Origin: Pseudomonadota bacterium
GTDB lineage: Bacteria > Myxococcota_A > UBA9042 > GCA-2863065
Reading direction: 5' to 3'
Length of the DNA stretch: 33,044 nucleotides
Assembly (NCBI GenBank): GCA_002863065.1
Contig: PKDL01000329.1
Coordinates: 1 to 33,044, forward strand
Part shown: positions 2,680-28,406 of the stretch, one piece after another
Layout: the number at the start of each line of letters is the position of its first letter
Position numbering within the stretch: the first letter of the stretch is position 1
Notes under the pieces: generated by a model
What the model saw: only the letters and a program-made list of their open reading frames with translations
Database searches by the model: none
Told to the model about the DNA's origin: nothing
Position numbers and translations under genes: made by a program

Positions 2680-2769
2680 GAAGTTTTGCTCCCCTGGAAG
2701 CGGTTTGAGTGTGAGCGAAGCAGTCAATTAGTGGCCAGACGGCGCCGCTCGATTATGTAAAAAGGTTTT

Positions 2770-4014: not shown

Positions 4015-4035
4015 GCCAACTCCTTTGGCTTTCTG

Positions 4036-9345: not shown

Positions 9346-11612
9346 GGTGCTACCTCCTCGAGGGGGGCTCCCAAATCTTGAGCAGGCCGGAAGAATACGT
9401 CCACGGTGGTCCACGCAGGAACTAAGGTTCCTGGCCGAATAGATTGCCCAGCAGCCGTACCTGTGCCGTCTACTTCAATGGACAAGTATTGTTTATGCGC
9501 CAGAGCTACCGCCCCGCGAATACCTAGGTCTGCAAAGTCAGGGACCGCGACTTCATTCGGTCGATTCGGATCGACGCCAGGTTGTGTGTCTGCCGGCCAA
9601 TCGTAATACGCGCCTTCGGCGCTTGGATCGGGTTCACCTAGTTGAGCTACAATATTCTCACGCGCAACACGTTGGCGCGCGCCATACGATGGCGAAACGT
9701 CCAGATAGTTCAGGGCGCGTTCAGTGATAGACCGGAATGCAGGAGCCGCTACCCGGCCGCCATAGTACAGCCCTTGAGGCTCATTTACTGCAACCAGCAC
9801 ACAAAGTTTTGGTCGCTCTGCTGGAGCAAGGCCGACAAAGCTCGCTACCCATCTATTCTCGGCGTACCCACCGAGGAAATCGGGTTTTTGAGCGGTACCT
9901 GTCTTCCCTGCGACGTTGTAGTCATACATCCAAGCACGAGCTCCTGTCCCATCGGGCTCGACAACACTTGAAAGCGCTTCAACGACTTGGTGTGCAGTTT
10001 CTTCAGAAACCACTCGGCGGATTGGTTTTGGCGGAATACGCTCAACGATTTTACCTTCGGAGTCCATGAGTGCGGATACGATACGAGGACGCATTAGCAC
10101 ACCCCGATTACCCAACGCTGCAGTGGCCGAAGCAAGCTGTACTGCTGTCACAGCGACACCTTGTCCAAATGAGATATTCGCCAAGGTTATATCTGGCCAG
10201 TCTCGCGGCGGTCGTAGGACTCCCGGAGAGTCTGACATGCCGCCGTATCCCGACGGAGATCCGAAACCAAAATTTCGCAGGTAGGAATGTAATCGGTCGC
10301 GGCCAAGCATTTGACCAATCTTGATGAATCCAACATTTGATGAGAACTTCACGAGGTCACGAACCGATAATGGTTCATTGCTTCGGTGCGTGTCGCTAAT
10401 CCACTTTTTACCGACTTTGTACCTACCGCCTTCCGTATCAATCTCATCCTCAAGCCGGACAATGCGCTCTTCTAATGCAGCCGCCAGCGTGAATATTTTG
10501 AAAGTGGAGCCAGGCTCAAATATGTCGGCGATGGCTCGGTTACGTCGCCTTTGTATCGACGGTTTTAGGTGCTTTAGAGCCTGAATGAGGTCCTCATCTT
10601 CTGGTGCCTCTCGTAGTTCGGAAATCAACCGTCGTTTCAGCGTCTCGAAGGCAGCCTCTTGGTCATCATCCTGACGAATGATTTCCCGGTAGTTGTTTGG
10701 ATTGAACCGCGGATAGTGCGCCACCGAGAGAAGATCGCCAGTGGCGACGTCTAACACTACGGCAACCCCTGAAAGGGCCATGGAGGATACGACTGTACGT
10801 TCAAGTTCCTCTTCCGCAACTGCCTGAATATTTTCATCGATTGTCAGCTGAAGTGAACGACCTTCTTCTGGTTCGACACGCCCCAATGCTTCCACCATGG
10901 CGTATTGGCCATGGCTGTTTCGGTGGTATCTAGCGGTGAGCTTATTGCCTCTCAGCTGTCGGTCATAGGCCCGCTCAAGGCCCTCATGTCCGGTCGAGTC
11001 AAAGCCAACAACGCCCAGAACCTGTCCAGCCAGTTCACGCTTTGGATAAAAGCGTTTTGCTTCAGACGTGACGTAGATACCCTCAAGCTTCTGTTCTCGG
11101 ACCAAGTGGTGTACCAGCTTCGCTTCTTGGTGGGTTACTTGACGCTTCAGATAACGGAAGTCGGCGTTGGAGCTGAGTTGCTTTCGTACGAACTCTGGAT
11201 CCAGGGACAAGTTCTCAGCCAGCCAGTGTTCAAGCAGATCGAGGTCAGTAGCCTTCGAACGCAGCGTTCGCGGATTTAGATAGATCGTAGGTACCTCTAC
11301 CGAGGCCGCTAGTCGTTCTCCATTGCGATCGAACAACTCACCTCTTTGGGTATCGAGTCGTAAGCGGCGTAGATAGTTCTTTTCTGCCTCTTTTCTGAAA
11401 GCATCATGTTCGCATCCTTGGAGGTATGCGCATGTGCCCAGAACAGCCACAAAGCATACCGACAAGATACCTCCGACGAGTCCCAACCGTCGCAGCTGCA
11501 TTCGGTCGAGTTCCACACCGGTGAGTCGCGGCGCTTTGACCTTGGCTTCGCGTTTTTTATTCCGATTGGATGCACCACGCCCGCGGCGATTCTGGGAGGT
11601 AGGACGGCCCAT
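9342..11612 (-). CDS. ftsI: Class B penicillin-binding protein (FtsI-like) with C-terminal PASTA domain
   Basis: N-terminal TM; transpeptidase motifs SxxK (FEPGSTFKIF), SxN (SSNVGF), KTGT (AGKTGTAQ). C-terminal PASTA-like VAVPDFADLGIRGAVALAHKQYLSIEVDGTG. Confidence 0.93.
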   Translation of the reverse strand: MGRPTSQNRRGRGASNRNKKREAKVKAPRLTGVELDRMQLRRLGLVGGILSVCFVAVLGTCAYLQGCEHDAFRKEAEKNYLRRLRLDTQRGELFDRNGERLAASVEVPTIYLNPRTLRSKATDLDLLEHWLAENLSLDPEFVRKQLSSNADFRYLKRQVTHQEAKLVHHLVREQKLEGIYVTSEAKRFYPKRELAGQVLGVVGFDSTGHEGLERAYDRQLRGNKLTARYHRNSHGQYAMVEALGRVEPEEGRSLQLTIDENIQAVAEEELERTVVSSMALSGVAVVLDVATGDLLSVAHYPRFNPNNYREIIRQDDDQEAAFETLKRRLISELREAPEDEDLIQALKHLKPSIQRRRNRAIADIFEPGSTFKIFTLAAALEERIVRLEDEIDTEGGRYKVGKKWISDTHRSNEPLSVRDLVKFSSNVGFIKIGQMLGRDRLHSYLRNFGFGSPSGYGGMSDSPGVLRPPRDWPDITLANISFGQGVAVTAVQLASATAALGNRGVLMRPRIVSALMDSEGKIVERIPPKPIRRVVSEETAHQVVEALSSVVEPDGTGARAWMYDYNVAGKTGTAQKPDFLGGYAENRWVASFVGLAPAERPKLCVLVAVNEPQGLYYGGRVAAPAFRSITERALNYLDVSPSYGARQRVARENIVAQLGEPDPSAEGAYYDWPADTQPGVDPNRPNEVAVPDFADLGIRGAVALAHKQYLSIEVDGTGTAAGQSIRPGTLVPAWTTVDVFFRPAQDLGAPLEEVAP

Positions 11613-11615
11613 GTA

Positions 11616-12389
11616 TTACATACGCCTCCGGCATCGGCGGCCTAATGGCGATTCAGGCGCGTCTTTGTAGCACTGTTTATACTGAGCTCTGGCAGTGGCG
11701 TGTTCTCCAATGCGTTCATAAAGGCGACCCAGTTGAAAGTGAGGCTCAGCGAACTTCTCGCATTTTTCCGTCGCCCGTCCGAGGTAATCAACTGCAAGCT
11801 CTTCGTCACCGAGCTCCCCGTAGAGCGTCCCGAGATTGGCATAGCCCAGACAAAACTTTGGGTTATGGAAGAGCGCCTGCTTGTAGTGGTGCATGGCTTG
11901 TCTTCGTTTCAGAAGTTGGTGATATGCATAACCTAGGTTGTTGTGTACCAGCCAAGGGGTTCCATACAGTGTGGCACCGACGAGGGGTTTCAGTACTTCA
12001 ACTGCGTCACGCCAACGCTTTTCTGCAAGCAACACAGCCCCCAGGTTGTTTCTCGCCTCGTGAAAAGCAGGGCGTAGATCCAACGCGGTCCGGAAGTGAT
12101 TTTCGGATTCGCTGTATTCCCGTCTTCCAAAGAAGATCATACCCATGAGGTGATGTGCATCCGCATGCTTCGGATCAAGCTTTAGGCACAACGTGAGTTC
12201 ACGCAGAGCACCGGGAATATTGTGTTCGTAAAACGATGTGTTCGCGAGTCGATAGTGGTAGTCGATCTTCTTTGCTTGGTCCTCGTCTTTCGACATGGCG
12301 GCACAGGCGCTCAAACACAATAAGACGAGTACTGGAACGATCATCTCGAGACGCCGACCAAGTGCACCTTGTGTGGGTTTACGGCACAT
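11616..12389 (-). CDS. TPR-repeat lipoprotein (PilF/PilW-like)
   Basis: Lipobox-like LVLLCLSAC; repeated TPR units (ADAHHLMGMIFFGRREYSESENHFRTALDLRPAFHEARNNLGAVLLAEKRWRDAVEVLKPL). Start could instead be MIVPVLV at about 12344. Confidence 0.85.
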   Translation of the reverse strand: MCRKPTQGALGRRLEMIVPVLVLLCLSACAAMSKDEDQAKKIDYHYRLANTSFYEHNIPGALRELTLCLKLDPKHADAHHLMGMIFFGRREYSESENHFRTALDLRPAFHEARNNLGAVLLAEKRWRDAVEVLKPLVGATLYGTPWLVHNNLGYAYHQLLKRRQAMHHYKQALFHNPKFCLGYANLGTLYGELGDEELAVDYLGRATEKCEKFAEPHFQLGRLYERIGEHATARAQYKQCYKDAPESPLGRRCRRRM

Positions 12390-12857
12390 TTACGGAACGA
12401 CCTCCGTTGGAGTATTCGACACTCGGATTTCTACGACATCCTGTGGTGCAGGCTGGAGCATTCCGAGGCGTTTCTCAGCTCTAGAACGGACTACACGCGC
12501 TTCTTTGAGTGTGGATAGCTCTAGCGTAAGTTTCTGGTTTTCATCTCGGGCCGCGCGGTACTGTAGCGTTTCCCGGGAGAGGTCTTGGCCGGTCGAATAA
12601 ATCTGATACTGAGTCCATACACGGTACATACCGAGCAGGCTGACGACGGCAACGAAGCCGAAGCTCAGAAGAAAGACCTTCACACCCCAGACACGTCGCA
12701 ATTGTTGCAGTGCGGGGGCGGCACCAACCCGTGTGGTGCCTTTTATTGATGCAGCCGTATGGACGGATGTCTCCGCCGCTGGCTTTGAACTCGTCACGAA
12801 TCGCTCCCTCAGGTCACTCCGACCCCGATCCGTAGGCGTATTAACGCCATGTTGCAT
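12390..12857 (-). CDS. ftsL: FtsL-like divisome protein
   Basis: Small bitopic protein with one TM (VFLLSFGFVAVVSLLGMYRV) and a coiled coil ending EKRLGMLQPAPQDVVEI. Syntenic between mraZ and ftsI. N-terminal start uncertain. Confidence 0.8.
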   Translation of the reverse strand: MQHGVNTPTDRGRSDLRERFVTSSKPAAETSVHTAASIKGTTRVGAAPALQQLRRVWGVKVFLLSFGFVAVVSLLGMYRVWTQYQIYSTGQDLSRETLQYRAARDENQKLTLELSTLKEARVVRSRAEKRLGMLQPAPQDVVEIRVSNTPTEVVP

Positions 12858-12885
12858 TGGATGACTTCTGCAGCTCTAACTGTGG

Positions 12886-13338
12886 TTAGAGTCCGATTTC
12901 AGCCATGGCATCTAGAACCGCATCGACACTATCGTCGCCAGCGAGCTCTTCGGATACACTAAGCCAGTTGTCGGGCTGCCAAATCTCCAAGTATTTTCCG
13001 ACGCTTACGAATGTTGCTGCATCCGAAATCGCAGCGAACGTTCGTAGTGCGCCGGGCACTAGTATTCGGCCTGCGCGGTCCAGTGCGCAGGTACGTGCGG
13101 CGGGAAAGAGGAATCGCTTCAAGCTGTGCAGCTGTCGCTTCGCTAACCCAGAGGCTGCAATAGCCTCCGCAAGCTTTTCCCATTCAGGCTCTGGAAATCC
13201 CCAGAGGCACTTTCCATGCAGTGACTTCGTGAGAACTAAGCGCTCCTCATATTTACGTCGTAGGACGTCGCGCATGTCCGCTGGAACCGAGATGCGGCCC
13301 TTTTCGTCCATCGTATGAGTGTATTCACCAGTAAACAT
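12886..13338 (-). CDS. mraZ: Transcriptional regulator MraZ
   Basis: MFTGEYTHTMDEKGRISVPADMRDVL and the second AbrB-like repeat CALDRAGRILVPGALR; first gene of the dcw cluster. Confidence 0.95.
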   Translation of the reverse strand: MFTGEYTHTMDEKGRISVPADMRDVLRRKYEERLVLTKSLHGKCLWGFPEPEWEKLAEAIAASGLAKRQLHSLKRFLFPAARTCALDRAGRILVPGALRTFAAISDAATFVSVGKYLEIWQPDNWLSVSEELAGDDSVDAVLDAMAEIGL

Positions 13339-13404
13339 TCGTCTCGCCGCCGATATCAGTTCGCTCTGGTAATTCCCTCTTGTCACCAGGTCGTACATGC
13401 GTGG

Positions 13405-13439
13405 ACCCATTTCATCCCACTTTGTCCCACGCCTCACCA
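13405..13439 (-). promoter_or_regulatory. MraZ-binding boxes in the mraZ promoter region
   Basis: On the minus strand: TGGTG-AGGCG-TGGGA-CAAAG-TGGGA-TGAAA-TGGGT. Three perfect TGGGN boxes and one degenerate box in exact 10-bp register, about 67 bp upstream of the mraZ ATG. Confidence 0.85.
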
Positions 13440-13442
13440 CGA

Positions 13443-14051
13443 TTAGCCATCTAGCCCCTGATCCGTCAAGGGGTTTATCTGCTTAGAGGTCAAGAAAAAC
13501 GGGGAAAAGAGCCGTTGCACCGACATATGGTGTGGGGCGAGGGGTGGTGACCCAAGATGTTGTGCGGCCACTGTGTCAGTCGAATAGAAGAAACCTGAAT
13601 GCAGAACAGATCGACTTTTGTGGATAACTACGTTTTTTTTGGGGGAGGGGGCCAGGAATTGTCCAATGTAGGTCGAAAGTGGGGCTTTTAAGATGTCGGT
13701 CAGCCGTGTCTCGGTGCAGTTCTTGGGGTAGCAGTTAGCGAGCTCTCGAGCTACGTCTCGCGCCCGCTGGTAGCGGCGGTCGCGGTCCTTTGCAATGCTT
13801 CGATGCAGCACGCAGTACATACTTTCAGGCACTGAGGATTCAGTAAGTCGCGGACCTCGGGATGGGGTGTATTGATCATGGTAGAAGATCGTACCGTTTA
13901 AATAGGGAACGTGTCCGCAGTAGATGGCATATAGCAAGCAGCCGGGGCTGTAGACGTCGGCAGGGTGCTCCAAGAAGTCGCGTTGTATTTGTTCGGGAGC
14001 GCTATGGAAGAAGTATGTTAGTTGCACTGAAGAGCAACACGTCAACCCCAA
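13443..14051 (-). pseudogene. Truncated Ser/Thr protein kinase remnant (C-lobe only)
   Basis: Kinase subdomain VIII-XI-like residues (SAPEQIQRDFLEHPADVYSPGCLLYAIYCGHVPYLNG ... LHRSIAKDRDRRYQRARDVARELA). No N-lobe, HRD or DFG in frame; upstream frame closes by stop near 14110. Confidence 0.6.
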
Positions 14052-14414: not shown

Positions 14415-15995
14415 TCAGCGGCGACGTAGCTCTTCGGGTAAAAGCCATCGCCAAGCGCCCGCGGCACTATCACGTGAGAACTTAGGTGCTTTCATTGCTT
14501 GCCCCTGCGCATGTTCCAGTTGGACCGCCGAACTCGTGACGCGCGTGACGCGTCGAGCCTGTCCCGCAAGCACCACCATATCTCCTACTTTGACATCACT
14601 CATTGCGCTTCCAATGGCTTTTCCTGAGGCTGCATCTACGAACTTTTTCCCACCAGTGGATGGTATGTTGCTGTGCAGTAGCCCTTTTTCGCCTAAGTCC
14701 ATCGTCCGAGTGGTAGCGTGTAAACGCATGCCTCTCCGAAAAAGGAAAGGACCGTCTTCGAAGGCTTCTAAGTGTTCAATGATAGCGTGAATAGTATCGG
14801 CCTCAGATAGCTGTGACAGATGCGCTTGTATCGTGCGTAGTTCTACCCCTGAAGGCATAGCAAACAGCATGCTAAGTATTTGCTGCGCTACCACACTTAG
14901 ATCCGGCTGATAGGCCTCAGGTTCGAGCTGCCCGGCACGGGTCATTTCTACATACGTCCGAAAGGTTTCCATATCGTCGGGGGCGTCACAAATTCCCACA
15001 GCAAACATGGTGTGTTCTCTACGACAGCCGCGACCAATGCGCTGTTGGAACGACGCAATATTTCGAGGGGGCTGCTGAAGCACAATGGCGTCAACATCAC
15101 CGATGTCGATGCCAATTTCCATGGTCATCGTTGCGACGCATAAACCCCATGGCCAGTCTCGCATAGCGGCTTCTGCACTTTCGCGCTGACGTTTCGCGAG
15201 GCTCCCATGATGTGCAACTAATCGGTTTGCAGGCCAAACAGACTGCAAGCGCTCTGCGACGAGCTCGACGTCCTGACGTGTTTCACAGAACCACAATACC
15301 TTATGGCGGCGATGCTTTCGCAGCAATGCTACGGCTTCTTCGGGGTCTGATACCGCATGAAACTCCAGCTCCCTACGTTCTCCGATGTCGATTATTTCCG
15401 CGCTTGAAGACAGGTAGCGCTCTACAAAGGCGTTTGGTTCGGCCGCTGTCGCTGAGAGTGCGACACGTTGGGATGTAGCTGGTAATCTTGAAAGGAGGAC
15501 CCGCACTTGATCCCCGCGATACGTACCATCGACGAGATGCACTTCATCTAGCACAATCGCGCCCAACTCAGAAAACCGTTCGGGTTGTCGGCACAGTAGG
15601 CTATCGAGACTTTCTGGGGTCGTTAGAAGCACTGCTGCCGTCTGGTTGCTACGAAGCGGTTGTTTATCGCCGGTTCGGGCGACGAGTGGAAGCCTTAGAT
15701 CTCTGAGTGGACCTTCAAGTCGACGGTAGAGATCATTCACCAGTGCACGAGTGGGCACCACATAGAGGACACGCAGAACGGTATCGCCAGGAACGGCATG
15801 GCGTTCTAAAAGGGGGGCAATAGCAGCGGCAGTCTTGCCACTGGCGGTTGGCGAGCATAGTAAGAGGTCATGCCCATCCAGCAATGGCGTCAGGGCCACT
15901 AGCTGGGTGGGGTTGAGCTGTCCATGCGTCACAAAGAAGGGGCCAAACGTGTTACGAAGCGCTCGCCGTACCTTCAGTGGAGTCCAAGACGTCAC
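14415..15995 (-). CDS. Superfamily-2 DEAD/DEAH helicase, short Lhr-core/BrxHI-like
   Basis: Motif I SPTASGKTAAA, Ia PTRALVNDLYRRL, TTPESLDSLL, II DEVH, III SAT, VI QRIGRGCRR. C-terminal Lhr-core-like beta-barrel GDMVVLAGQARRVTRVTSSAVQLEHA. GTG start overlapping upstream stop (GTGA). Confidence 0.85.
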   Translation of the reverse strand: MTSWTPLKVRRALRNTFGPFFVTHGQLNPTQLVALTPLLDGHDLLLCSPTASGKTAAAIAPLLERHAVPGDTVLRVLYVVPTRALVNDLYRRLEGPLRDLRLPLVARTGDKQPLRSNQTAAVLLTTPESLDSLLCRQPERFSELGAIVLDEVHLVDGTYRGDQVRVLLSRLPATSQRVALSATAAEPNAFVERYLSSSAEIIDIGERRELEFHAVSDPEEAVALLRKHRRHKVLWFCETRQDVELVAERLQSVWPANRLVAHHGSLAKRQRESAEAAMRDWPWGLCVATMTMEIGIDIGDVDAIVLQQPPRNIASFQQRIGRGCRREHTMFAVGICDAPDDMETFRTYVEMTRAGQLEPEAYQPDLSVVAQQILSMLFAMPSGVELRTIQAHLSQLSEADTIHAIIEHLEAFEDGPFLFRRGMRLHATTRTMDLGEKGLLHSNIPSTGGKKFVDAASGKAIGSAMSDVKVGDMVVLAGQARRVTRVTSSAVQLEHAQGQAMKAPKFSRDSAAGAWRWLLPEELRRR

Positions 15996-17365
15996 GAGTT
16001 GAGTAGGTCTTTTAGTGGGACATTAGGGTGGAATCGTCGATAGTCCAGGCATTCCACAAATGCCTTGATAAATCGTCTTGTTGCTACGCTACCGAAGCGG
16101 GTCAGCAGTTTGCCTACGAGTGCCGTAACCGTTACCGACTTGAACTCTACGCCAAATAATGAGCCGTACACGAGATTGATTCGTTCGGCTAATGAACGCA
16201 ACGCACGAGCTCGTACCGGTTCTATTTCGATCACTGTTTGTTCACCCCGCCATTCTTTATATTGGCCGCGCATTGGACCTGGGGTGGTGGCCATCACGAC
16301 CTTAAGTCCACATGGAGATGTATACAAGTAGGGGACACGTCGATGTCCCGCGTAAATCAGCCCTGTATGTGCGCCGACGTAGGTTGATTCTCGAAGTATC
16401 GGCTCGTCGAGCAGCTCGGGTTCGTCATTCGCAGTCATTGTCAGTCCGCGGAAGAATGACTGCGCTCGGCGAAAATGAAACCGGTAGAGGCAAGCACTTG
16501 CGGTTTCTACTTCGTCAATGAGTAGAACTAATCCAGCGAGACCAACGACTTCGGTACACAGGTGACCTAGGCCGCTTAATAGGTTGCAATATACGTTCGC
16601 AGTCGTCGTGAAATCGGGTAGGAAACCTGTTGCAGCTGTCGCAGGTCCTTCCCCTGACACTGCCGCCCAGTCGGCCGCCGTCATGCGCCCATCAGCAATC
16701 TTATCGAGCACTCTTCCTAGGATGGGGTGGTCCGGTATCGGATTTCCTCCATGGCGCTCTACTGAGGCCATGAGTAGGTGCGTGAGGCCTCCAATACCAG
16801 GGACTTCTAGCCCTCGTGCGATCTGGCGATATAAGCGTTTGGGAAATGCGGCGCTTTCTTCTCCTGCATCCAGATGTGAGTAACTCACTGCATAGCCGCT
16901 CTCATGCGCTCGAGCGCGCGCGGCTTGGAGTAGATGGGATTTACCACTGCCATACGCGCCTTCAATGAGCAGGCTGCCATCCGCTTGATCGTCCAGCCAG
17001 TAGTTTATGTGCGCAAGTTCGTCATCGCGCCCAAATGTCCATTTCTGTACGTACTGATCGGGCACGGTTCCAAGGCGGAAGGCTTCTATTACGCGCCGAT
17101 CCTCGTGCGTTGCGACAATCTTGGGTGGTTCTGATGCTCGCGCCGTGCGGGGCTGAGGTGCGACCGCCAGTCTGCGTGAGGGAGCTGGTAGCCGTTTACC
17201 GTCTTCTTTCCCACCTACAAATCGTAACTCAGTGCCTTTGACCCAGGTGCGAACGGCCTTGAATTGGATCCAGTATTCGTAGCCGTTGTACCGACTTTGA
17301 AGCACACGCCCAGTGCCCATGAGTCGATGGCGGACTTGTGCTCCTTTTGGGATAGGTGTTCTCAC
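15992..17365 (-). CDS. BrxD/DUF2791-like P-loop ATPase with N-terminal SH3/CarD-like domain
   Basis: Walker A IEGAYGSGKSHLL, Walker B LVLLIDEVET, RRVIEAFRLGTVPDQYV start of ATPase domain. GTG start in a GTGA overlap with the upstream gene. Confidence 0.75.
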   Translation of the reverse strand: MRTPIPKGAQVRHRLMGTGRVLQSRYNGYEYWIQFKAVRTWVKGTELRFVGGKEDGKRLPAPSRRLAVAPQPRTARASEPPKIVATHEDRRVIEAFRLGTVPDQYVQKWTFGRDDELAHINYWLDDQADGSLLIEGAYGSGKSHLLQAARARAHESGYAVSYSHLDAGEESAAFPKRLYRQIARGLEVPGIGGLTHLLMASVERHGGNPIPDHPILGRVLDKIADGRMTAADWAAVSGEGPATAATGFLPDFTTTANVYCNLLSGLGHLCTEVVGLAGLVLLIDEVETASACLYRFHFRRAQSFFRGLTMTANDEPELLDEPILRESTYVGAHTGLIYAGHRRVPYLYTSPCGLKVVMATTPGPMRGQYKEWRGEQTVIEIEPVRARALRSLAERINLVYGSLFGVEFKSVTVTALVGKLLTRFGSVATRRFIKAFVECLDYRRFHPNVPLKDLLNS

Positions 17366-18606
17366 AGCAGCTTACGCGCCGATTCCAGGTCGAGCGGAGT
17401 AGCTTGTCCGGCCCGCGCAAGGTGAAAGGCTTTGACGCAGCCTTGAACAAACAGGCGCTTGTACCCAATGTCACCAAAGCGTTGTTCGTACGCCGCCTTC
17501 GCGACCGCACCCACAATTGGTCCTTTATTTGGCAATAGAAGGTCAAAGGCGCGTTCGTAGACGTCGGCCAGCTTTAGCCCAATTGCTTGCAGTAGTTCCA
17601 AGGGGTCTATTTCTAGTTCGTCTAGGCGGATGGTCACGCCGGTTGGGTTGAATACTTCGAAGACACTCGATATTCGCTGGTTGAGCGCTTCATATACGCT
17701 GCTCCGGCCTTCGAAAAAATTAGAGTCGGGTACGGCATACACCATCAGAACGCCGGCAAAGTGTTGATGCCCACACTCGTCGATGAGTTCTCTCAGGTTC
17801 GACAGAAGCGCATCCCGTTGCCTTGTCGAAAGACTGGGAACTTGCTCTGCCTCGTCGAATAAAATGCATAATCCCGGGTAGCCCAATTGCCGGACCCATT
17901 GCGTAAGTGACCGCAGCATCGACAGTGCGACGCTCTTATCGATTGCATGCAGCAGCCCATATCGTTTATGGCGTTCTCGAGCATACCCTGCTGCAGTCAG
18001 CCACTGCAGAAGGTCCGCCAGCTCGTTATGCTTATCTCTTGCGAGTGCTTCGACCGCATTCACAAGCGCTTTCTGCATTTGTAAGCTTTCTAGTCCCTGG
18101 ACCGCACGCTCCGCCATCTGAACCAGAGCAGATATCCGCTTAGACTCCGGAATATCTCGTTCCTCAAGATCCTCCATGAGCCGTAGGTGCCACATTTTTA
18201 GGAGCGGGAGTAGACCGGTTTCCATACTCTGGAACGCATCTTCGCTAGTGACAGGCAACGCGATGCTTCGAGCGATTTCGGCATAGACACGGTCTAAACG
18301 ATGAAACGGGGAGGCTTCGGGCGACAACGTCACATATGCGACGGGGAACCCGTGCTTCCAACCAAGCGCCCGTACACTGTAGAGAAAGTGCGTTTTACCT
18401 CCGCCATATGTTCCTACGAGTAGCTTAAATGTCGCGCCACCCTGTGGGAGGTAGCTTGCAAGGTAGTCTTGCTCAAGCACGTTCAGGTAGGAATCAAGTC
18501 CAGCCGAGAAGAAGTGAAATCCCCATTGAGGCGGGGTCCCGCTTGAGCCTACGGTTTCTATGATTCGGCGGGCAGCGAATGTCGAGGGCGTATCGAAGTC
18601 TGCCAT
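17362..18606 (-). CDS. BrxD/DUF2791-like P-loop ATPase
   Basis: ARRIIETVGSSGTPPQWGFHFFSAGLDSYLNVLEQDYL, Walker A VGTYGGGKTHFLYSV, Walker B LCILFDEAEQ. Start MADFDTP with AAAGG upstream. Confidence 0.8.
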   Translation of the reverse strand: MADFDTPSTFAARRIIETVGSSGTPPQWGFHFFSAGLDSYLNVLEQDYLASYLPQGGATFKLLVGTYGGGKTHFLYSVRALGWKHGFPVAYVTLSPEASPFHRLDRVYAEIARSIALPVTSEDAFQSMETGLLPLLKMWHLRLMEDLEERDIPESKRISALVQMAERAVQGLESLQMQKALVNAVEALARDKHNELADLLQWLTAAGYARERHKRYGLLHAIDKSVALSMLRSLTQWVRQLGYPGLCILFDEAEQVPSLSTRQRDALLSNLRELIDECGHQHFAGVLMVYAVPDSNFFEGRSSVYEALNQRISSVFEVFNPTGVTIRLDELEIDPLELLQAIGLKLADVYERAFDLLLPNKGPIVGAVAKAAYEQRFGDIGYKRLFVQGCVKAFHLARAGQATPLDLESARKLL

Positions 18607-18725
18607 TTTATTACCTTTCAAACAGTCTCACGGCTTGTGACGCTCTATGCTCACATCGCCGCTATTCTCTGATGCAGACTACACTGCTTTGACTCGCACA
18701 AGACATGTGAGGTGGGGTGGCATCA

Positions 18726-19550
18726 TTATCGGAAAGAGATGAATGCGTAATGCGTTCCATCCACCCACAAGTGATCGGCACTCTTCTTCGTCTGTTCGCG
18801 AGTGGCCACGGTTAGGGCGAGTTCTCCGAACGCTGCACTTCTAGTACGCAGCCGGGTCAGGTCGTGACTAAATCGCACTGCGCCATATTCTACCACTCCG
18901 CGACCAAGTGGCTCCCAGGCTTGTGGGGGCTGCCTTCCGGACGCAAGTGCCTCATGCACAGCACGTATCGGTGCACGCTCTCCCGGTGATAAGTTGAGCC
19001 GTATGAGAGCCACTTTCCATGCGGTATGTAACTCGGTAAGAAATGCCAGGTCGTCCATCGTATCGCCATTGAGAGATTGCATGTCTCTCAATACCGCGTC
19101 TGCGATTGTCTTTGGGTCGAGTGGAACGGTATGCAACAGGGTGATTTTGGGGCCGTAATAGATTTTGACCGCTGGCTTGTTTCCGAAAAGAAATTCGAGA
19201 GTCATGGGGCCAACGGTCGGTGTTGGCAGGCGGCCCTGCAAGGCTAGGCCCCGCTGGGTTAACTCATCGTGTAACTCGGCCGCTAATCTTGCTCGCCCCC
19301 GTTCAGTCGCGATTTTCCCCTGTTCTTCTAGTTGGTTCAAATATGCTGGTAGCTCCGAGAGGTCGGCGGCTGTGGGTAGTATTGGCTTGAGCGCCTTACG
19401 AACATCAGCCACCGTGGAGGTGATAGCAAAAGGACGGTCATCTATATGTTTTACCGCGGATTCCAGCTGCTTCAGGGCGCCAGTAAGAGCCTCGGCTGTT
19501 CGCGCGATTTTCGCGGCGGCCTTCCGGCTATTTGTGAGTTCATCACTCAT
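18726..19550 (-). CDS. Uncharacterised protein with predicted helical N-terminus
   Basis: 274-aa ORF, initial MSDELTNSRKAAAKIARTAEALTGALKQLESAVKHI, ATGA overlap with the upstream gene. No recognised family. Confidence 0.7.
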   Translation of the reverse strand: MSDELTNSRKAAAKIARTAEALTGALKQLESAVKHIDDRPFAITSTVADVRKALKPILPTAADLSELPAYLNQLEEQGKIATERGRARLAAELHDELTQRGLALQGRLPTPTVGPMTLEFLFGNKPAVKIYYGPKITLLHTVPLDPKTIADAVLRDMQSLNGDTMDDLAFLTELHTAWKVALIRLNLSPGERAPIRAVHEALASGRQPPQAWEPLGRGVVEYGAVRFSHDLTRLRTRSAAFGELALTVATREQTKKSADHLWVDGTHYAFISFR

Positions 19551-20392
19551 TTGTTGAGACTTTTCTCCAGTGTCGAAAGTTTATCGGAATCCACAGTTTC
19601 AAATCCGGTGATTCTCATCTTCTTACAGGCCTCTGCGTGTTTTTTGCATACGCCTAAGAGTGCTTTGTGGAGTGTGTCATCTTTCTCACCGGTGTTAGCG
19701 ACGATGGCCCCTGGTAAGGTCGGGCCGGCAAGCAGGGATGTCAATTTTGAGTATTTGGCCGAGCTTTGAAGGGCTTTGAACTGTACATCGTTGAGAATTG
19801 CTGCTGCTGCCTTACCCTTTACTGCGTTTTTTACCGCTTTACGTGCACTTCGTGTGCGCTCGAGAGTAAACGATTTTGTGACATCAACTTTGGAATCAAA
19901 TGCCACTCTGGAGAGAAAGGTATCTGACGCTTTCAATCCGGTTTGAACCACTTTACCGCTCAGGCTTTCCATTGTCGTACCGGGTAACGCAACAAGATGG
20001 TAAGACCCTGCAGTTTCTTCGTTTTGTAGCGCAGCATTTGCAGTCAGTTTCCAGGCCTTGCGTTCTGCAAGAAAGAGGTCAAGCGGTACCATGACGACCG
20101 ATGCAGGATGTGCCTTCATCGTTGCCCTGCAGTCCCTCATATTGTTTATGTATGTCCCATTGACATCATCCCAACCTGTGAGCGACGCCAGATGTCCAAG
20201 GAACTCATCCACTATGGGCTGTGCTTGCTCTGTTGAACCAGGCCCGCCAGGAAAGCACAGAAGCACTCGTGCAGATGTCGCGGATGCGGAGAATGCCACG
20301 AGCATCGTTAGTACGGCGATAATGCAGTTGCTAGTACGACTAATTCGTAGGTTCCTCATTCGTTTAAATCCATCCTTCATGATGCTTGGCAA
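19547..20392 (-). CDS. Secreted PhnD-like periplasmic substrate-binding-fold protein
   Basis: Signal peptide (CIIAVLTMLVAFSASATSA); PBP-like pattern (VVMVPLDLFLAERK, SLSGKVVQTGLKASDTFLSRVAF, KAAAAILNDVQFKAL). Start may be one of several internal Met codons. Confidence 0.6.
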   Translation of the reverse strand: MPSIMKDGFKRMRNLRISRTSNCIIAVLTMLVAFSASATSARVLLCFPGGPGSTEQAQPIVDEFLGHLASLTGWDDVNGTYINNMRDCRATMKAHPASVVMVPLDLFLAERKAWKLTANAALQNEETAGSYHLVALPGTTMESLSGKVVQTGLKASDTFLSRVAFDSKVDVTKSFTLERTRSARKAVKNAVKGKAAAAILNDVQFKALQSSAKYSKLTSLLAGPTLPGAIVANTGEKDDTLHKALLGVCKKHAEACKKMRITGFETVDSDKLSTLEKSLNK

Positions 20393-20549
20393 TCAAGCGT
20401 CACGGTGTTTGGCCCTTTCCTGTCGTTTCCTCGATACTCCGTCGCTCGGCAAGTCTCTATGCAAAACCAGGTATCAGGCACCGTGCTACCTTGCACTTAC
20501 CTAGTTGAGACGACATTAGCCTCCTATGCATTCAGATGACTTGATATGC

Positions 20550-23264
20550 CTACGCTTGCGGTTGCTTTTCACCGATAAGATACATGACCGCGGGCAATAC
20601 GAATAGTGTCGCCAGCAGACAGCTGGATACACCCAACACGAGTACTAGGCCGAGTGAGCGAAGCCCTTCATACTGTGCGAAGTACATTGAACCGAACGCG
20701 ATGATAGTAGTGAACGACGATACTATAATAGCCTTGCCCGAGGTTCGTACCGCTTCTTTTACACTCTGACCATGTTCACGCCAGGAATGGACAAGGTGTA
20801 CTCCAGAATCCACACCTATCCCGATAATGAGTGGGAGCGAGATCCCATTTCCAAAGGTAAACTGAATGTTGAGAATGTACATTGCGCCCACCATCCAGAC
20901 GGAACCCAGTACGAGAGGGAGAAGTGAAAGCATCGTGTCCCGAATGCTGCGAACATCTAGCCAAACCAGTAGTAACACGAGCGTCGTCGCGTAAAACAAT
21001 GAGTTCTTGAACGAACGGGCGAAGATCTCACCAAAGTACGCATAATTGATCGCATACCCAGTGGCGCCGTCATCGATAGCACGAAGCCGTTGGCGGAAGT
21101 CACTGACAAACTCCGCGTCTGCGACGTCACCCATTGGATACACGCGGGTTGCATAGGACGTGTGGTTATTAGCGGTGGATCGGAATGCTGCGAGTGTGGA
21201 TTCTGGCAGATCCGTGATTTCGAAGGCGCGTCCTTCGTTCACAAACCTCTTGATTCCTGGAACAAGCTCCGTCAAGGCTCCTTCGAATTTGTTGATTCTG
21301 GTTCCCAGTTGTATCGGTGTCAGCGATTGTGCAGATGTTCGTAGCTCGTTCACTTTTTGAGCAAGTCGTCGGATATAGGGCAAGAGGTCTTTTTGACCGA
21401 GCTCCGTTAGGGCAAACGGCAAATCGTCTTCGAGTAACTCCTGCAGTGCGGTCAGGTCCTTTACAAATTCTTGTGCCTTGAACTTGGAGTCAGCTTCGAA
21501 GCTGATTGGGCGTTGGCCGCGTATCGACTTTCTAAGCGACTGGATGAGAGGTGTTTTTTCAGCTACCTCGGTAGGCAGTACGTCTAGAAGGCTTTCGACG
21601 CGGGATGCGATACCTTCCTCGACTAATTCGGATGCAGCATTGGTGTGTTGGACGACTTCACTGAGGTCATCCCCTTCCAAACCGGCATACTCTAGTTGTC
21701 CTAGCCCGAGCGCTTCAAGTCGTGCCATTGTTTGAAGTGTGGGGGTGTCTTTGGGGAGCAGATTATTCGAGTCTAGGTCCCACTTGATAGGTCGAATAGC
21801 AGATGCAGTCCAAATCGTAAGAGCAATGCCGACCCCGACAGCCAGATATCGCATTGAGTATGGCAGACATAGATGAAGCCCTGCCTTACCAGGAGCCCTT
21901 TTCGTCCGAAACATCTTGCTACCGGGACTGCCCAGCAGCGTTGGTAACATTATAAATGAGGCCAGTAGTACGCAGAGCAGTGCTCCAGAAGCCATGATGC
22001 CAAGTTCGTACGTGCCCTTGAATTCGGTAAACGCCATCACTCCGAATGCGGCTGCACTCGTCATCGCGCCAATCACTATAGGTGGGCCGGTACCGACTAG
22101 AGCTGTTCGCACCGCATCGGGGGGAGATTGACCTTCTAGTCGTTCCAGCCGGATACGAGTGAAGAGATGCACACCAAAGTCAATGCCCATGCCAATAATA
22201 ATGACCAGAAAGGAGCTCGTAAACATGGTCATCTTGTCAATGGCTATGACCGCATAGCCTAATCCCCAGGCGATTCCGGTGAATAACGCAGCCATAATGA
22301 CCAACATGCCACCAAAGGTACGGTATGCGATCAGGAACAGCAGCAGGCATCCGGCTGCAGATACGGTGCCCGTGAGCGACATGTCGCGTCCTATTGCCTT
22401 ATTTTCATCCGACACAATGGATGGAACCCCGGCAAATCCGTAGGTGGTATCTTCAGGGAGGTACGTTACTACTACGCTTTTTATGTTATCGAGCAAAGGA
22501 ACGGCCACTTGCGGGTCTATTACGTCGCCCATGCCACGGATCCGCATGAGCAGTGCATTGTCTGGACCAACGGACATATATCCCGCAGAGTCTAATTGGA
22601 TAGGGCCGTTCGTTTGCTTCTGAAGTTCCGTGAGATTGAACGACGTCTTTTCTTGATTGGTCAACCACGTCCGGAGTTCATCGAACAACGCTTCCACTAT
22701 AGCGGTGGCGGCTTCAAGATCATCGGTACTAAACTCAGGTGTTTTGATGTCGCTGGTATCACCGTCTGCGAATTCTTCTAAACTGGTATTGAGTTCCTGA
22801 ATTACACCGTGGACACCAACGAGGGCGATAGGCTTGTCAGCAGCCGTCATTGGTTTGGGTAGAGAGGCTAGGCCTTTCGCTACGCGCTGCAGCTTGTTTT
22901 TGGGTAGATACCATGCAGCGATATGGGACATCTCCGCCACATTGACTCGGTACGTCACATTTTCGGCGAGTCCATTTTTGACGAGGTCGTTAGCGATGGA
23001 GTCCATTGCAAGCCGTCTCGACTTTAGATCGCCCCCCTCTACAAGCAACAGAATGTCATTCGTACCGAAGCGTGCATTGAATGCCATGAGTAGCTGTTGT
23101 TCACGATCGTCCTCATTCACGATGGCGTGGCGAGACGAGTCGATCTGGATGTAATTTACGACGCACCAAATCGATGCGGCGAACAGTATCGTACAGGTGA
23201 AGAGCACGATGCCGCGTCGTCGTTCAATCAGGGTCGCTAGTACGTGGAACAGTTGCTCCCGCAT
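20550..23264 (-). CDS. RND/MMPL-family transporter (HpnN/MmpL3-like architecture)
   Basis: Two MMPL-type membrane blocks (FLVIIIGMGIDFGVHLFTRIR and ISLPLIIGIGVDSGVHLVHSW) separated by large periplasmic domains. Confidence 0.88.
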   Translation of the reverse strand: MREQLFHVLATLIERRRGIVLFTCTILFAASIWCVVNYIQIDSSRHAIVNEDDREQQLLMAFNARFGTNDILLLVEGGDLKSRRLAMDSIANDLVKNGLAENVTYRVNVAEMSHIAAWYLPKNKLQRVAKGLASLPKPMTAADKPIALVGVHGVIQELNTSLEEFADGDTSDIKTPEFSTDDLEAATAIVEALFDELRTWLTNQEKTSFNLTELQKQTNGPIQLDSAGYMSVGPDNALLMRIRGMGDVIDPQVAVPLLDNIKSVVVTYLPEDTTYGFAGVPSIVSDENKAIGRDMSLTGTVSAAGCLLLFLIAYRTFGGMLVIMAALFTGIAWGLGYAVIAIDKMTMFTSSFLVIIIGMGIDFGVHLFTRIRLERLEGQSPPDAVRTALVGTGPPIVIGAMTSAAAFGVMAFTEFKGTYELGIMASGALLCVLLASFIMLPTLLGSPGSKMFRTKRAPGKAGLHLCLPYSMRYLAVGVGIALTIWTASAIRPIKWDLDSNNLLPKDTPTLQTMARLEALGLGQLEYAGLEGDDLSEVVQHTNAASELVEEGIASRVESLLDVLPTEVAEKTPLIQSLRKSIRGQRPISFEADSKFKAQEFVKDLTALQELLEDDLPFALTELGQKDLLPYIRRLAQKVNELRTSAQSLTPIQLGTRINKFEGALTELVPGIKRFVNEGRAFEITDLPESTLAAFRSTANNHTSYATRVYPMGDVADAEFVSDFRQRLRAIDDGATGYAINYAYFGEIFARSFKNSLFYATTLVLLLVWLDVRSIRDTMLSLLPLVLGSVWMVGAMYILNIQFTFGNGISLPLIIGIGVDSGVHLVHSWREHGQSVKEAVRTSGKAIIVSSFTTIIAFGSMYFAQYEGLRSLGLVLVLGVSSCLLATLFVLPAVMYLIGEKQPQA

Positions 23265-23322
23265 CCTGCCGAAAGTAACAGCCGGCGAGCTATTGTGAAA
23301 GACGCGCTATGTCACATAATTC

Positions 23323-25869
23323 TTAGGCGGGGTGTGAGGACCGCGCAGTATGGTGTCCGTATGTGATTCTGAGGATGGCTGGCAGGAGGATAAGATCCAC
23401 GACGAGGGCTGCGATGACGGTCAGTCCGATCAGGACACCAAAACGTGCGATTGCTGCATTGAGCGCTGCGACGTAGACCAAGAACCCAGCACCCAAAATG
23501 ATAGATGTACCGACCATGGCTCGTGCAGCATGATGGGCGGCGGTCGTAATCGCACGTTCACAATCGCCCGTCTCTATGAGGCCGGCTTTGAAGTGGTGCA
23601 GGAAATGGATCGTGTCATCAACTGCGATCCCGAGTGCAATGGAAGCAATGAGCAGGTTATTCAGGTCGACTGGGATGTTGGTTAGGCCCATGATACCCAT
23701 GACGATAGCGATGGGTACGAGGTTTGGGACCATCGCTATCAAACCCAGTTTGAGGTCTCGAAGCATGAACACCATCAAAACAGTGATAAAGAGGAATGCA
23801 GTCCCAAAGCTTTTTATCAAATCCTGTAACAGGGTTAGTACGATACGAAACATCAGATAAACGCTGCCCGTACCGCGGACCTCGGTAGTCGCCGATAAGT
23901 GCTCCTCGGCCGAGGTCTCGATTCGCTCGAGCAGCGGTTTGTAGCTTGTAGCCTCACGCCACTTCACCTGGAATGTGATGTGACTCTTATCGAGATTCAG
24001 TGTTGCCAGCCGTCGTAATTCGGAAGGTCCGCTGGTTTCGAATAAGAAGAGCAGGGCATTAAGTTCGTCCTGCGTGTCGGGAAGTCGGTATGCCTTTGGG
24101 TCACCATTATTGAGTGCGCGCCGCGTTTCCTTCACCACATCCAACAGTGACAGTGCGTGTCCCACAACTTGAACGCCCTCAAGTTCGAATTGCTGGATAT
24201 CCTCCGCTAACTTTTCGAGACCCTGCAGGACATTCAAGTCCTTCATGGTGCCACTCTTGGGTTCTAATATCAGTACGGCTGAGGACACCCCACCGACGTG
24301 TTTGTCCATACTGAACACCGAACGCTTTATTTCCATATCGTCCGGAATGGTCGCTAAGTCATCATGGGAGACTTTTAGTGTTGTGATCCCGTAGATGGCG
24401 ATGGTTGAGAATATTGCGAAAACAGCAACCATTTGCCAGAGGCCTGTCCGCAAAGAGAGCCGAACGCATACGCCGATTGCGCGGTCGATCAGATCACCAC
24501 TTTCTGACGCATTGCGGGGGGCTGCGCCCATGAGGCTGGAACGGTTAAAGGTGAGGCAAATCGGCAGAAATATGAGTGATAGGGTGAGCGCAAACATGAC
24601 ACCGACGCCGCCTGCTACCCCCATTTCAGCGATGGCTTCGATGTTTGCAAAATTGAGACTAAAGAGACCGCACATGGTGGTGAGGGACGTGAATAATACC
24701 GGCGGTCCGGTCACTCCAACCGCTCTTGCGATGGCCTCGTTATTGGGCACATCAAACCGCCGTAAATCCCTGTAGATACTAATCATATGAACAGAGTCAC
24801 CGACCCCGACTACTAGAAGGAAGGATGGTAAGATGACCGACAGTATTGTCATGCCGTACCCTACGGCCGCCATAAAGCCGAGCGTCCATACAACGGCGAG
24901 TCCGACAACTACCACTGGACCAAATATTCCGATCGGATGGCGAAACAGGAAGGTGAGCATCAGAAGCATCGCTAAACCTGAGTAGGTTGCGAGTCTGGCT
25001 GTATCTTGCAGGACGATTTGATTCAGCGCAGCGTTTATCGCTGGCTGGCCTGTCACTTGGATTTTGAAAAAGTCTGCTTGAAGAGGTTCCAGCGCTCGCT
25101 GAAGCTCCAATGCGACCAGTTCCATATCTTCGTCGCGCATTTGAAATGTGCGGGCTGCAATCACGGTGTGCCGCGCGCTTTTACCTACCAGACGGCCAAC
25201 AATGGCTGGGTCGTTCAACGCGGCTTTTTTGATGTTTGGGAGCGCATCTTCAGGCGGCATGGGGTCAAGTAGTTTTTCGACTCTGATGCCCGATTCTCCA
25301 TCGATCATTATTGGTACTGTCTGGCGGGCATTGATCAGAGAGACAACGTCTTCGATGACGCTGCCGCCTTCCACGCCCTCCCAATCGTCACCTTGTTGGC
25401 TAGTGGGGTCTTCAAAATCGTCTTCAAAACCGTCAGCAAAGTCATCTCCGAAGTCATCTTCAAGGGGTGGGGCGTCGGCTGACTGTGGCCTACTCGGTGT
25501 CGTTGGAACAGCGTCGAGGTGACTCGAGATCTCTACGTCGACATGAATGTTAGCAACGATCTCGTGAGCTTGCTTTAGCCGCTGTAAAAAGGCGGGCGTA
25601 AAGACGTCACCTTCGATCAGTATTAGAAAGAGATCATCGCGGCCGAATGTGGCGCGATACTCATCGATTGCGTCCATCTCGGGCGAGTCCGGCGCGAAGA
25701 CTTCCAGACTGTTGTTTATCTCTAGCTTGTTGACCACTAGCCACATGGCGCCAGCCGTTATCACTGCTAGGAGCAGTGCATACGCTAGCCGGTGTCGCAC
25801 AAAGGACCAGCCCATGCGGAGGAACCATGGATTAGGGCTGTCGGGTGGACGCGAATCGCGACTGTTCAT
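23323..25869 (-). CDS. RND/MMPL-family transporter
   Basis: MMPL blocks PSFLLVVGVGDSVHMISIYRDLR and NNLLIASIALGIAVDDTIHFLHHFK. Start chosen at MNSRDSRPP with upstream AGGA; the longest ORF extends to 25971. Confidence 0.88.
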   Translation of the reverse strand: MNSRDSRPPDSPNPWFLRMGWSFVRHRLAYALLLAVITAGAMWLVVNKLEINNSLEVFAPDSPEMDAIDEYRATFGRDDLFLILIEGDVFTPAFLQRLKQAHEIVANIHVDVEISSHLDAVPTTPSRPQSADAPPLEDDFGDDFADGFEDDFEDPTSQQGDDWEGVEGGSVIEDVVSLINARQTVPIMIDGESGIRVEKLLDPMPPEDALPNIKKAALNDPAIVGRLVGKSARHTVIAARTFQMRDEDMELVALELQRALEPLQADFFKIQVTGQPAINAALNQIVLQDTARLATYSGLAMLLMLTFLFRHPIGIFGPVVVVGLAVVWTLGFMAAVGYGMTILSVILPSFLLVVGVGDSVHMISIYRDLRRFDVPNNEAIARAVGVTGPPVLFTSLTTMCGLFSLNFANIEAIAEMGVAGGVGVMFALTLSLIFLPICLTFNRSSLMGAAPRNASESGDLIDRAIGVCVRLSLRTGLWQMVAVFAIFSTIAIYGITTLKVSHDDLATIPDDMEIKRSVFSMDKHVGGVSSAVLILEPKSGTMKDLNVLQGLEKLAEDIQQFELEGVQVVGHALSLLDVVKETRRALNNGDPKAYRLPDTQDELNALLFLFETSGPSELRRLATLNLDKSHITFQVKWREATSYKPLLERIETSAEEHLSATTEVRGTGSVYLMFRIVLTLLQDLIKSFGTAFLFITVLMVFMLRDLKLGLIAMVPNLVPIAIVMGIMGLTNIPVDLNNLLIASIALGIAVDDTIHFLHHFKAGLIETGDCERAITTAAHHAARAMVGTSIILGAGFLVYVAALNAAIARFGVLIGLTVIAALVVDLILLPAILRITYGHHTARSSHPA
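25409..25470. repeat. 12-bp degenerate tandem repeat encoding an acidic DDF-type peptide
   Basis: tcttcaaaatcg tcttcaaaaccg tcagcaaagtca tctccgaagtca tcttcaagg; encodes EDDFGDDFADGFEDDFEDP on the minus strand. Confidence 0.7.
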
Positions 25870-26074
25870 ATGGTATTTGAGTCCTGAATCGGTGGTCGAA
25901 CTAAGCGCTGGTTTTCCATAAAATCGACGTTTTCTCACCGGAAGACGACCAGCCCTTACAGGATGGTTCAAATTATCGTTTGGCGCGGATGCGATGTCTA
26001 AATTGGAGGTCGGCCCTCTGTCATCTTGTCATGTCGCTTGGTTGTTGTGCGTATATCGCCGCGAAGCCAGCAGA

Positions 26075-27649: not shown

Positions 27650-28401
27650 TGGCCGCGCACGAGGCTGCGTTTACTGAATACCTTGTTGGGAATGGGCTCG
27701 TTGATCTTCTGCGAGAGCATCTCCAATCGGGTCTTTAAGCCGCCTTCACTCGACATGGTGATGGTTTTCCAGGTTGGGGCGCCTCCGACAACAGTAAAGT
27801 TTGTCCGGTGTTGGGTCTTCACTTTCTTACCAGCATCCCAGTACTCGACCACTTCGATGAGTGCGTGTTTTTTATTTATCCGTAGCCGCAGCTTGGGCCA
27901 AGCCGCGTCGGACTCTGCTTTTTTATTGAGCTCCAGCCAGACATGATCATCTGCAGCAGCACCTACTGTCGCATTGTACTCTGGTGCGAGATTGACAGTT
28001 GCCATATCGGCGTAGGTAAAATTCGATCCCAGCAGGTTCTGACGGCGCGCTGATGTAGCGACGCGCCGTACATTTTCCGTCTGCGGTGCATACACGTACA
28101 TCGTGCGACCCTTGGACAACACGCTCATACCTTTGACATCTCCAGGCGAAAGGAACCGCACCAATCGCTTAGAACCTTTCTGCATAACGTCGAATTTCAT
28201 CGAGCGCTTGGAACCACTGACAGGGATGACGGTCATTTCGAATGTCCATTTTTGGCTGTCGTAGGCGTTATGCCGCTTATCCAGGGCTTCCAATAGTCCC
28301 TGGGGGGTCTGCGACAATGCATCGACGTCCAGTGGCGTGTCGGCTAAGACTAGAGTCGGGATGCTAAGTAGTGTGAAAAAAAGAAGCACTGAGAGACGCA
28401 T
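27646..28401 (-). CDS. LolA-fold 'outer membrane lipoprotein-sorting' family protein
   Basis: Signal peptide MRLSVLLFFTLLSIPTLVLA; family pattern VRFLSPGDVKGMSVLSKG...MYVYAPQTENVRRVATSARRQNLLGSNFTYADM. Confidence 0.8.
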   Translation of the reverse strand: MRLSVLLFFTLLSIPTLVLADTPLDVDALSQTPQGLLEALDKRHNAYDSQKWTFEMTVIPVSGSKRSMKFDVMQKGSKRLVRFLSPGDVKGMSVLSKGRTMYVYAPQTENVRRVATSARRQNLLGSNFTYADMATVNLAPEYNATVGAAADDHVWLELNKKAESDAAWPKLRLRINKKHALIEVVEYWDAGKKVKTQHRTNFTVVGGAPTWKTITMSSEGGLKTRLEMLSQKINEPIPNKVFSKRSLVRGQ

Positions 28402-28406
28402 TATCC

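What the first reader, a model, noticed from the sequence alone, without database searches (positions are those of the whole stretch)
14415..19550. Candidate BREX-like cassette: helical partner, two BrxD/DUF2791-like ATPases and a short Lhr/BrxHI-like helicase
Seen: four co-oriented genes, with the two ATPases and the helicase joined by GTGA stop/start overlaps (17362-17365, 15992-15995). Both ATPases have Walker A and B motifs, and the helicase has a full SF2 motif set ending in an Lhr-core-like beta-barrel. Established: BrxD (DUF2791 P-loop) and BrxHI (Lhr-like helicase) occur together in some BREX phage-defence systems alongside PglX methylase, PglZ phosphatase and large ATPases. Inference: this is a stripped-down relative with two ATPases and no methylase, PglZ or nuclease in the window. 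It could be a standalone anti-phage, anti-plasmid or DNA-repair machine.
Basis: partly seen in the sequence, partly recalled or inferred. Interest (0 to 1): 0.85.

Follow-up and report, generated by a model that had tools for sequence, protein, structure and literature searches.

The report
Undescribed four-gene ATPase–helicase DNA machine
Four neighbouring genes encode two DnaA/ORC-like motor ATPases, an Lhr-like helicase and an adaptor of no recognised fold; the same four genes recur in the same order across about twenty bacterial phyla and several archaea, so this is an apparently undescribed and widespread DNA-handling machine, not a broken piece of the BREX phage-defence system.

Summary
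Both ATPases match the BrxC/BrxD family and the helicase is a short Lhr/BrxHI-like enzyme. The fourth gene is a real partner, an adaptor of no known family or fold. The wider result is new: H274–ATP1–ATP2–HEL recurs in that order in most of 80 loci from about 20 bacterial phyla and several archaeal lineages. It is not BREX: the genome has no PglZ, and the helicase and ATPases fall outside the BrxHI and BrxD clades. It is not Shango: no SngA, and a genome can carry both. PADLOC, NCBIfam and the papers I could search name no such set. Two further findings shape the reading. ATP2 usually starts with a domain resembling the UvrD/PcrA Tudor and Mfd/CarD RID, a class known to bind RNA polymerase. 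In some families the set is near-universal, in one at a fixed housekeeping locus. My best reading is a two-ATPase loader that places an Lhr-like helicase on DNA, possibly at RNA polymerase, for genome maintenance. A standalone defence role is a strong rival: carriage is patchy elsewhere and all characterised relatives are defence systems. Function is untested.

The parts
18726..19550 (-). H274: 274-aa adaptor. Long N-terminal alpha-hairpin, then an alpha/beta C-terminal part; no known family, no nuclease signature seen
   Evidence: No relevant family in Pfam/PADLOC/NCBIfam for the window protein; the 66-member family gets only weak, coiled-coil-like NCBIfam/PADLOC matches. AF2 pLDDT 92.5, pTM 0.82; best PDB fold match E 0.1. 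A homologue precedes ATP1 in most related loci.
17362..18606 (-). ATP1: BrxC/BrxD-family (ORC/Cdc6-type) AAA+ ATPase, 414 aa, intact Walker A (GTYGGGKTH) and Walker B (LFDEAE)
   Evidence: PF10923 8e-42; own clade 99/96; start corrected to ATG 18606.
15992..17365 (-). ATP2: second, paralogous AAA+ ATPase, 457 aa, intact Walker A (GAYGSGKSH) and Walker B (LLIDEVE)
   Evidence: PF10923 9e-20; hhalign to ATP1 99.9%; AF2 pLDDT 90.5; Foldseek top hits include ORC, DnaA, RuvB, also BrxC 9zll.
17201..17365 (-). Tudor / RID-like five-strand barrel at the N-terminus of ATP2 (residues ~8-50)
   Evidence: Family profile matches UvrD Tudor structures 7egs 2.6e-4 and 6yi2 3.6e-4; PcrA_UvrD_tudor in 9 and CarD_TRCF_RID in 7 of 32 members, though not the window's own copy alone; strands 10-49 in the model; detected in 66 of 91 ATP2.
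14415..15995 (-). HEL: 526-aa SF2 helicase, Lhr-core-like, shorter at the C-terminus than the ~690-aa BrxHI/SngC forms
   Evidence: DEAD 1.5e-31, Helicase_C 9e-16; PDB profile best hit 5v9x, an ATP-dependent DNA helicase, 9e-63; outside the BrxHI+SngC clade.

Best explanation
The four genes encode one ATP-driven DNA-remodelling machine. ATP1 and ATP2 form a mixed ORC/Cdc6/DnaA-type AAA+ assembly on DNA. H274 bridges it to its partners through its long helical arm. The assembly loads or activates the Lhr-like helicase HEL. Where ATP2 carries the Tudor/RID-like domain, that domain tethers the machine to a partner protein, most likely RNA polymerase. The helicase would then strip or unwind DNA or hybrids at blocked transcription or replication sites. 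With no nuclease or modification enzyme in the set, it acts by remodelling and is somewhat more likely genome maintenance than restriction. Shown here: the gene set, its conservation, intact motor motifs, the predicted fold class of ATP2, the presence of the Tudor-like domain. Inferred: assembly, helicase loading, RNA-polymerase binding, maintenance role.
For: Conserved order and short junctions: ATP2-HEL median -4 bp, ATP1-ATP2 median 0. Co-divergence: pairwise-distance correlations 0.78-0.91 over 58 loci with all four genes. HEL is kept, but unlinked, in both same-family genomes that lack it beside ATP2 (54% and 51% identity). ATP1 and ATP2 are old separate clades with invariant Walker residues. 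ATP2 matches ORC, DnaA, RuvB; a 2026 BREX survey (PMC12839542) classes BrxD as ORC-Cdc6 AAA+ and suggests it loads BrxHI. Tudor-like N-terminus in 66 of 91 ATP2 and in none of the other three proteins; the PcrA/UvrD Tudor binds RNA polymerase experimentally (PMC5397179, PMC8318588). Near-universal carriage: 13/13 genomes of family f6 with conserved RluD-like and LonB-like flanking genes, and 20/23 genomes of a WOR-3 family. Not found in viral contigs or phages; plasmid matches are at 25-28% identity (annotated as BrxD where a name is given, best rows) and H274 has none. No recurrent fifth gene.
Against: Carriage is patchy elsewhere: 13/21 in family f19, 61/377 in the phylum sample, 5/61 in the Methanosarcinaceae sample, one of those with stop codons in the gene. 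Some flanking genes are defence-like (OLD-type ATPases, GmrSD, Mrr-type, reverse transcriptase). Every characterised relative of the ATPase+helicase pair known to me is a defence system. The Tudor-like domain is not detected in 25 of 91 ATP2, the window's own copy is not recognised by Pfam alone, and the domain could bind something other than RNA polymerase. No complex, loading or binding was modelled or measured.
Confidence: 0.45

Rival explanations
1. A standalone anti-phage or anti-plasmid system, analogous to Shango: the ATPases sense invading or aberrant DNA and load the helicase, which blocks the invader's replication or transcription.
For: Closest relatives are BREX BrxD-BrxHI and Shango SngB-SngC; Shango, a TerB+ATPase+helicase trio, is experimentally anti-phage (PMC10250203). 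Patchy carriage in several families, cross-phylum distribution, some defence-type neighbours; Shango has no annotated nuclease either.
Against: Fixed housekeeping locus and 13/13 carriage in f6, 20/23 in a WOR-3 family; not detected on plasmids, phages or viral contigs while PF10923-type ATPases at ~25% identity are on 666 plasmids, though those collections under-sample these hosts; most listed flanking families are not defence-related (no matched control run).
Confidence: 0.38
2. A decayed or stripped-down BREX locus.
For: BrxD- and BrxHI-type family matches.
Against: No PglZ in the genome; the same set without BREX genes in many phyla; ATPases and helicase outside the BREX clades; PglZ-BrxD-BrxHI loci occur separately in the same class, including in G004, which also has the trio.
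Confidence: 0.03
3. Two unrelated units side by side: a sterol-transport operon ending in H274, and an ATPase-helicase operon.
For: The H274 start overlaps the BstB-like stop, and 119 bp separate H274 from ATP1 in the window.
Against: H274 homologues precede ATP1 across phyla without Bst genes and co-diverge with it, r=0.89.
Confidence: 0.02

Closest known systems
Shango (SngA-SngB-SngC)
   Same: PF10923-type ATPase followed by an SF2 helicase of the BrxHI/SngC kind plus one extra protein; no methylase, PglZ or annotated nuclease
   Different: No TerB/SngA (H274 unrelated to an SngA by profile); two paralogous ATPases, not one; ATPases and helicase in other clades; ATP2 has a Tudor-like domain; G023 carries both a Shango and this set
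Type-2 BREX BrxD-BrxHI pair
   Same: ORC/Cdc6-type ATPase + Lhr-CTD-related helicase encoded as a tight pair (PMC12839542)
   Different: No PglZ; no PglX or PglW seen in the window; second ATPase; adaptor H274; helicase ~170 aa shorter; separate clades
PcrA/UvrD and Mfd/CarD RNA-polymerase-binding Tudor/RID domains
   Same: The ~50-aa N-terminal domain of ATP2 resembles these domains by family profile and predicted strands
   Different: Attached to an AAA+ ATPase, not a helicase or transcription factor; binding untested
Lhr helicases
   Same: SF2 core (PDB profile best hits 5v9x and 7lhl, ATP-dependent DNA helicases; that these are Lhr proteins is from memory)
   Different: Short form, encoded with two AAA+ ATPases and an adaptor

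Membership tests
BREX | PglZ gene | tested here: not met
   No PF08665 in the host genome; in 8 other set-bearing genomes absent from 4 and, in the 4 with a match, far from the set or on another contig
BREX | PglX/BrxX methyltransferase in the locus | tested here: inconclusive
   Not among the flanking proteins scanned; not every window ORF was scanned and the genome was not searched for it
BREX | ATPase of the BrxC/BrxD family | tested here: met
   PF10923 8e-42 and 9e-20; but NCBIfam BREX_BrxD equivalog 142 and 49 bits against a cut-off of 350
BREX | ATPase and helicase group with BREX BrxD and BrxHI | tested here: not met
   BrxD and BrxHI form separate supported clades
Shango | SngA (TerB-like) gene | tested here: not met
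   None matched in the window proteins scanned; none found in the genome (a search whose controls did not ring); H274 profile does not match an SngA
Shango | ATPase and helicase group with SngB and SngC | tested here: not met
   PADLOC SngB/SngC models match, but SngB and SngC form separate clades
Shango | Anti-phage activity | not testable with these tools
   Needs phage challenge
RNA-polymerase-binding Tudor/RID proteins | Tudor/RID fold resembling PcrA/UvrD or CarD/TRCF domains | tested here: met
   for the family profile and model; the window copy alone is below Pfam detection
RNA-polymerase-binding Tudor/RID proteins | Binding to RNA polymerase | not testable with these tools
   Needs pulldown or structure

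The most novel reading that the evidence does not exclude
A previously undescribed machine shared by bacteria and archaea in which a pair of ORC/Cdc6-type ATPases, tethered to RNA polymerase by a Tudor/RID-like domain and to partners by an adaptor of unrecognised fold, loads an Lhr-type helicase to resolve stalled transcription, R-loops or replication conflicts: a transcription-coupled repair route distinct from Mfd and UvrD.
Probability: 0.2. Interest if true: 0.92.

Novelty: new variant of a known kind. Interest (0 to 1): 0.72.

Why it matters
The set joins BREX and Shango to a third, widely distributed branch of the same ATPase+helicase pair. If that branch turns out to be genome maintenance, it would suggest what BrxD-BrxHI and SngB-SngC do mechanistically (helicase loading), a step reported as uncharacterised in BREX (PMC12839542). 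It also adds a conserved protein family of no recognised fold. Because PF10923 is named for BREX, family-based annotation is likely to label its two ATPases as BREX proteins, which may inflate BREX-like counts in uncultivated phyla.

Tried and rejected
Degenerate BREX: rejected. Shango member: rejected as a member, kept as the nearest analogue. H274 as part of the sterol operon only: rejected. A nuclease hidden in H274: no family or fold match; weak coiled-coil-like matches ignored. A clue from the 866-1027 aa ATP2 of Methanosarcina: the extra N-terminus is low-complexity with no informative domain. A recurrent fifth gene: none. HEL truly lost in HEL-less loci: not in G001/G002, where it is unlinked; apparently so in G004. 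A 'defence island' test on 146 flanking proteins was mixed: only a small share match defence families, but no matched control set was scanned and only pooled counts were returned, so it is descriptive only. First gene calls on high-GC loci were wrong and were redone with a codon model. Promoter and Rfam scans gave nothing useful.

Full report
What is there. The window (one whole contig of a 578-contig, 5.4-Mb genome) carries, on the minus strand, a 274-aa protein (H274, 18726-19550), two ATPases (ATP1 17362-18606; ATP2 15992-17365) and a 526-aa helicase (HEL 14415-15995). ATP1/ATP2 and ATP2/HEL overlap by GTGA. ATP1 most plausibly starts at the ATG at 18606. Upstream lie sterol-transporter-like genes, downstream a division/wall gene cluster beginning with mraZ. 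Related genomes reached from this one are mostly titled Myxococcota or Deltaproteobacteria MAGs; the two nearest are titled only 'Proteobacteria bacterium'. That the host is a Myxococcota is therefore an inference.

Family assignment. Pfam BrxC_BrxD matches ATP1 (8e-42) and ATP2 (9e-20), and HEL has a full DEAD/Helicase_C core. PADLOC's best models for HEL are BrxHI (1.7e-66) and Shango SngC (1.2e-60); both ATPases match BrxD and, more weakly, SngB. NCBIfam's BREX_BrxD model scores far below its cut-off. H274 matches nothing curated.

The set is conserved. In 53 related genomes, ATP1 is found in 30 and H274 in 21 (the ATP1 count includes distant BREX and Shango ATPases). Gene maps show H274-ATP1-ATP2-HEL in the same order in families f6, f7, f8 and f12, and H274-ATP1-ATP2 without an adjacent HEL in two f1 relatives and in G004. 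In those two f1 relatives an orthologous HEL lies elsewhere in the genome (54% and 51%). A scan of GTDB genomes with the ATP1 alignment found 169 relatives; the best 80 come from about 20 bacterial phyla (labels follow submitters' titles) and from archaea including Methanosarcinales, ANME-1/2, Methanoperedens and a Lokiarchaeon. Profile searches find the four genes in order in most of these loci; incomplete ones are partly contig ends. Junctions are short. A more divergent version, with a ~690-aa helicase, occurs in other families of the same phylum. Over 58 loci with all four proteins, pairwise distances correlate at 0.78-0.91, lowest for pairs with HEL.

It is neither BREX nor Shango. The genome has no PglZ and no other PF10923 protein. 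In the same class, PglZ-BrxD-BrxHI loci and a SngA-bearing Shango locus occur separately, in G004 and G023 respectively alongside this set or its trio. In a helicase tree BrxHI and SngC each form a 100/100 clade and join each other at 100/99, leaving HEL outside, although HEL itself is not one clean clade. In an ATPase tree, ATP1 (99/96), ATP2 (100/100) and BrxD+SngB (97/93) are three groups, so the ATP1/ATP2 duplication is older than the spread of the set. The ATP1 tree over loci is strongly clustered by taxon but not clean by phylum.

Clues to mechanism. ATP2's predicted structure (pLDDT 90.5) matches ORC, DnaA, RuvB and BrxC, as does its profile for DnaA and, weakly, ORC1. A recent BREX survey classes BrxD as ORC-Cdc6 AAA+ and proposes that it loads or activates BrxHI (PMC12839542). 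The first ~50 residues of ATP2 form a five-strand barrel whose family profile matches UvrD/PcrA Tudor structures (2.6e-4) and, in some members, the CarD/TRCF RID. It is detected in 66 of 91 ATP2 and in none of the other three proteins. PcrA/UvrD Tudor domains bind RNA polymerase (PMC5397179, PMC8318588). That makes an RNA-polymerase tether a reasonable, untested inference. H274 is confidently modelled (pLDDT 92.5), with no PDB fold match at E<=0.001; one short phage-protein match at 2.5e-3 covers only part of it.

Maintenance or defence. For maintenance: 13/13 genomes of f6 carry ATP1; among f6 loci with enough flank, an RluD-like gene lies upstream and a LonB-like gene downstream in nearly all; a WOR-3 family carries ATP1 in 20/23; the set's proteins were not found on phages or viral contigs, and plasmids gave only low-identity matches (25-28% in the best rows, annotated BrxD where named) and no H274. 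For defence: carriage is 13/21 in f19, 61/377 in the phylum sample and 5/61 in Methanosarcinaceae; some neighbours are defence-type; the characterised relatives are defence systems, Shango with direct evidence (PMC10250203). I did not run a matched control for the neighbourhood counts, so I give them little weight. Plasmid and phage collections under-sample these hosts.

Novelty. No set of this composition turned up in PADLOC 2023, H274 is in no NCBIfam, Pfam or PADLOC family, and nine paper searches found no description. The library holds open-licence papers only, so a description elsewhere cannot be ruled out. I rate it a new variant of a known kind: the ATPase+helicase pair is known, while the four-gene set, the paired ATPases, the Tudor-like domain and H274 are not described in what I could search.

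Noticed in passing
window 19547-31202: Sterol-transport-like locus: BstB-like (84 bits, cut-off 350), BstA/HpnN-like MMPL protein, further HAE3 and MMPL transporters, a 524-aa protein of no Pfam family (26075-27649) and an unscanned one (27646-28437); homologues of BstB, 26075 and 27646 also lie next to the set in G002 (L028).
   Followed up: partly
window 13443-14051: ORF matching only the C-terminal lobe of Ser/Thr kinases (Pfam 163-252 of 263), between HEL and mraZ; looks like a kinase remnant.
   Followed up: no
window 1357-13440: Cell division and wall gene cluster (MraZ, FtsI-type transpeptidase, FtsA, FtsZ among others) that includes a TPR-repeat protein (11616-12389).
   Followed up: no
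L120, L126, L128 (Methanosarcina-type): ATP2 carries a several-hundred-residue low-complexity N-terminal extension with degenerate repeats, and no Tudor-like domain is detected.
   Followed up: partly
G425 contig C100 (Methanosarcinaceae): ATP1 copy interrupted by stop codons, an apparent pseudogene.
   Followed up: no
L074:6857-7417, L072:5604-6167: Genes overlapping the end of HEL: a PLD-like protein in a Poribacteria MAG and a protein with a winged-helix-like end in Caldatribacterium; neither recurs. Assigned by eye.
   Followed up: no
L047 and L050 (G003, G010): Highly diverged versions of the set; L047's first gene is an H274 homologue (1.3e-35), L050's is not detectably one.
   Followed up: partly
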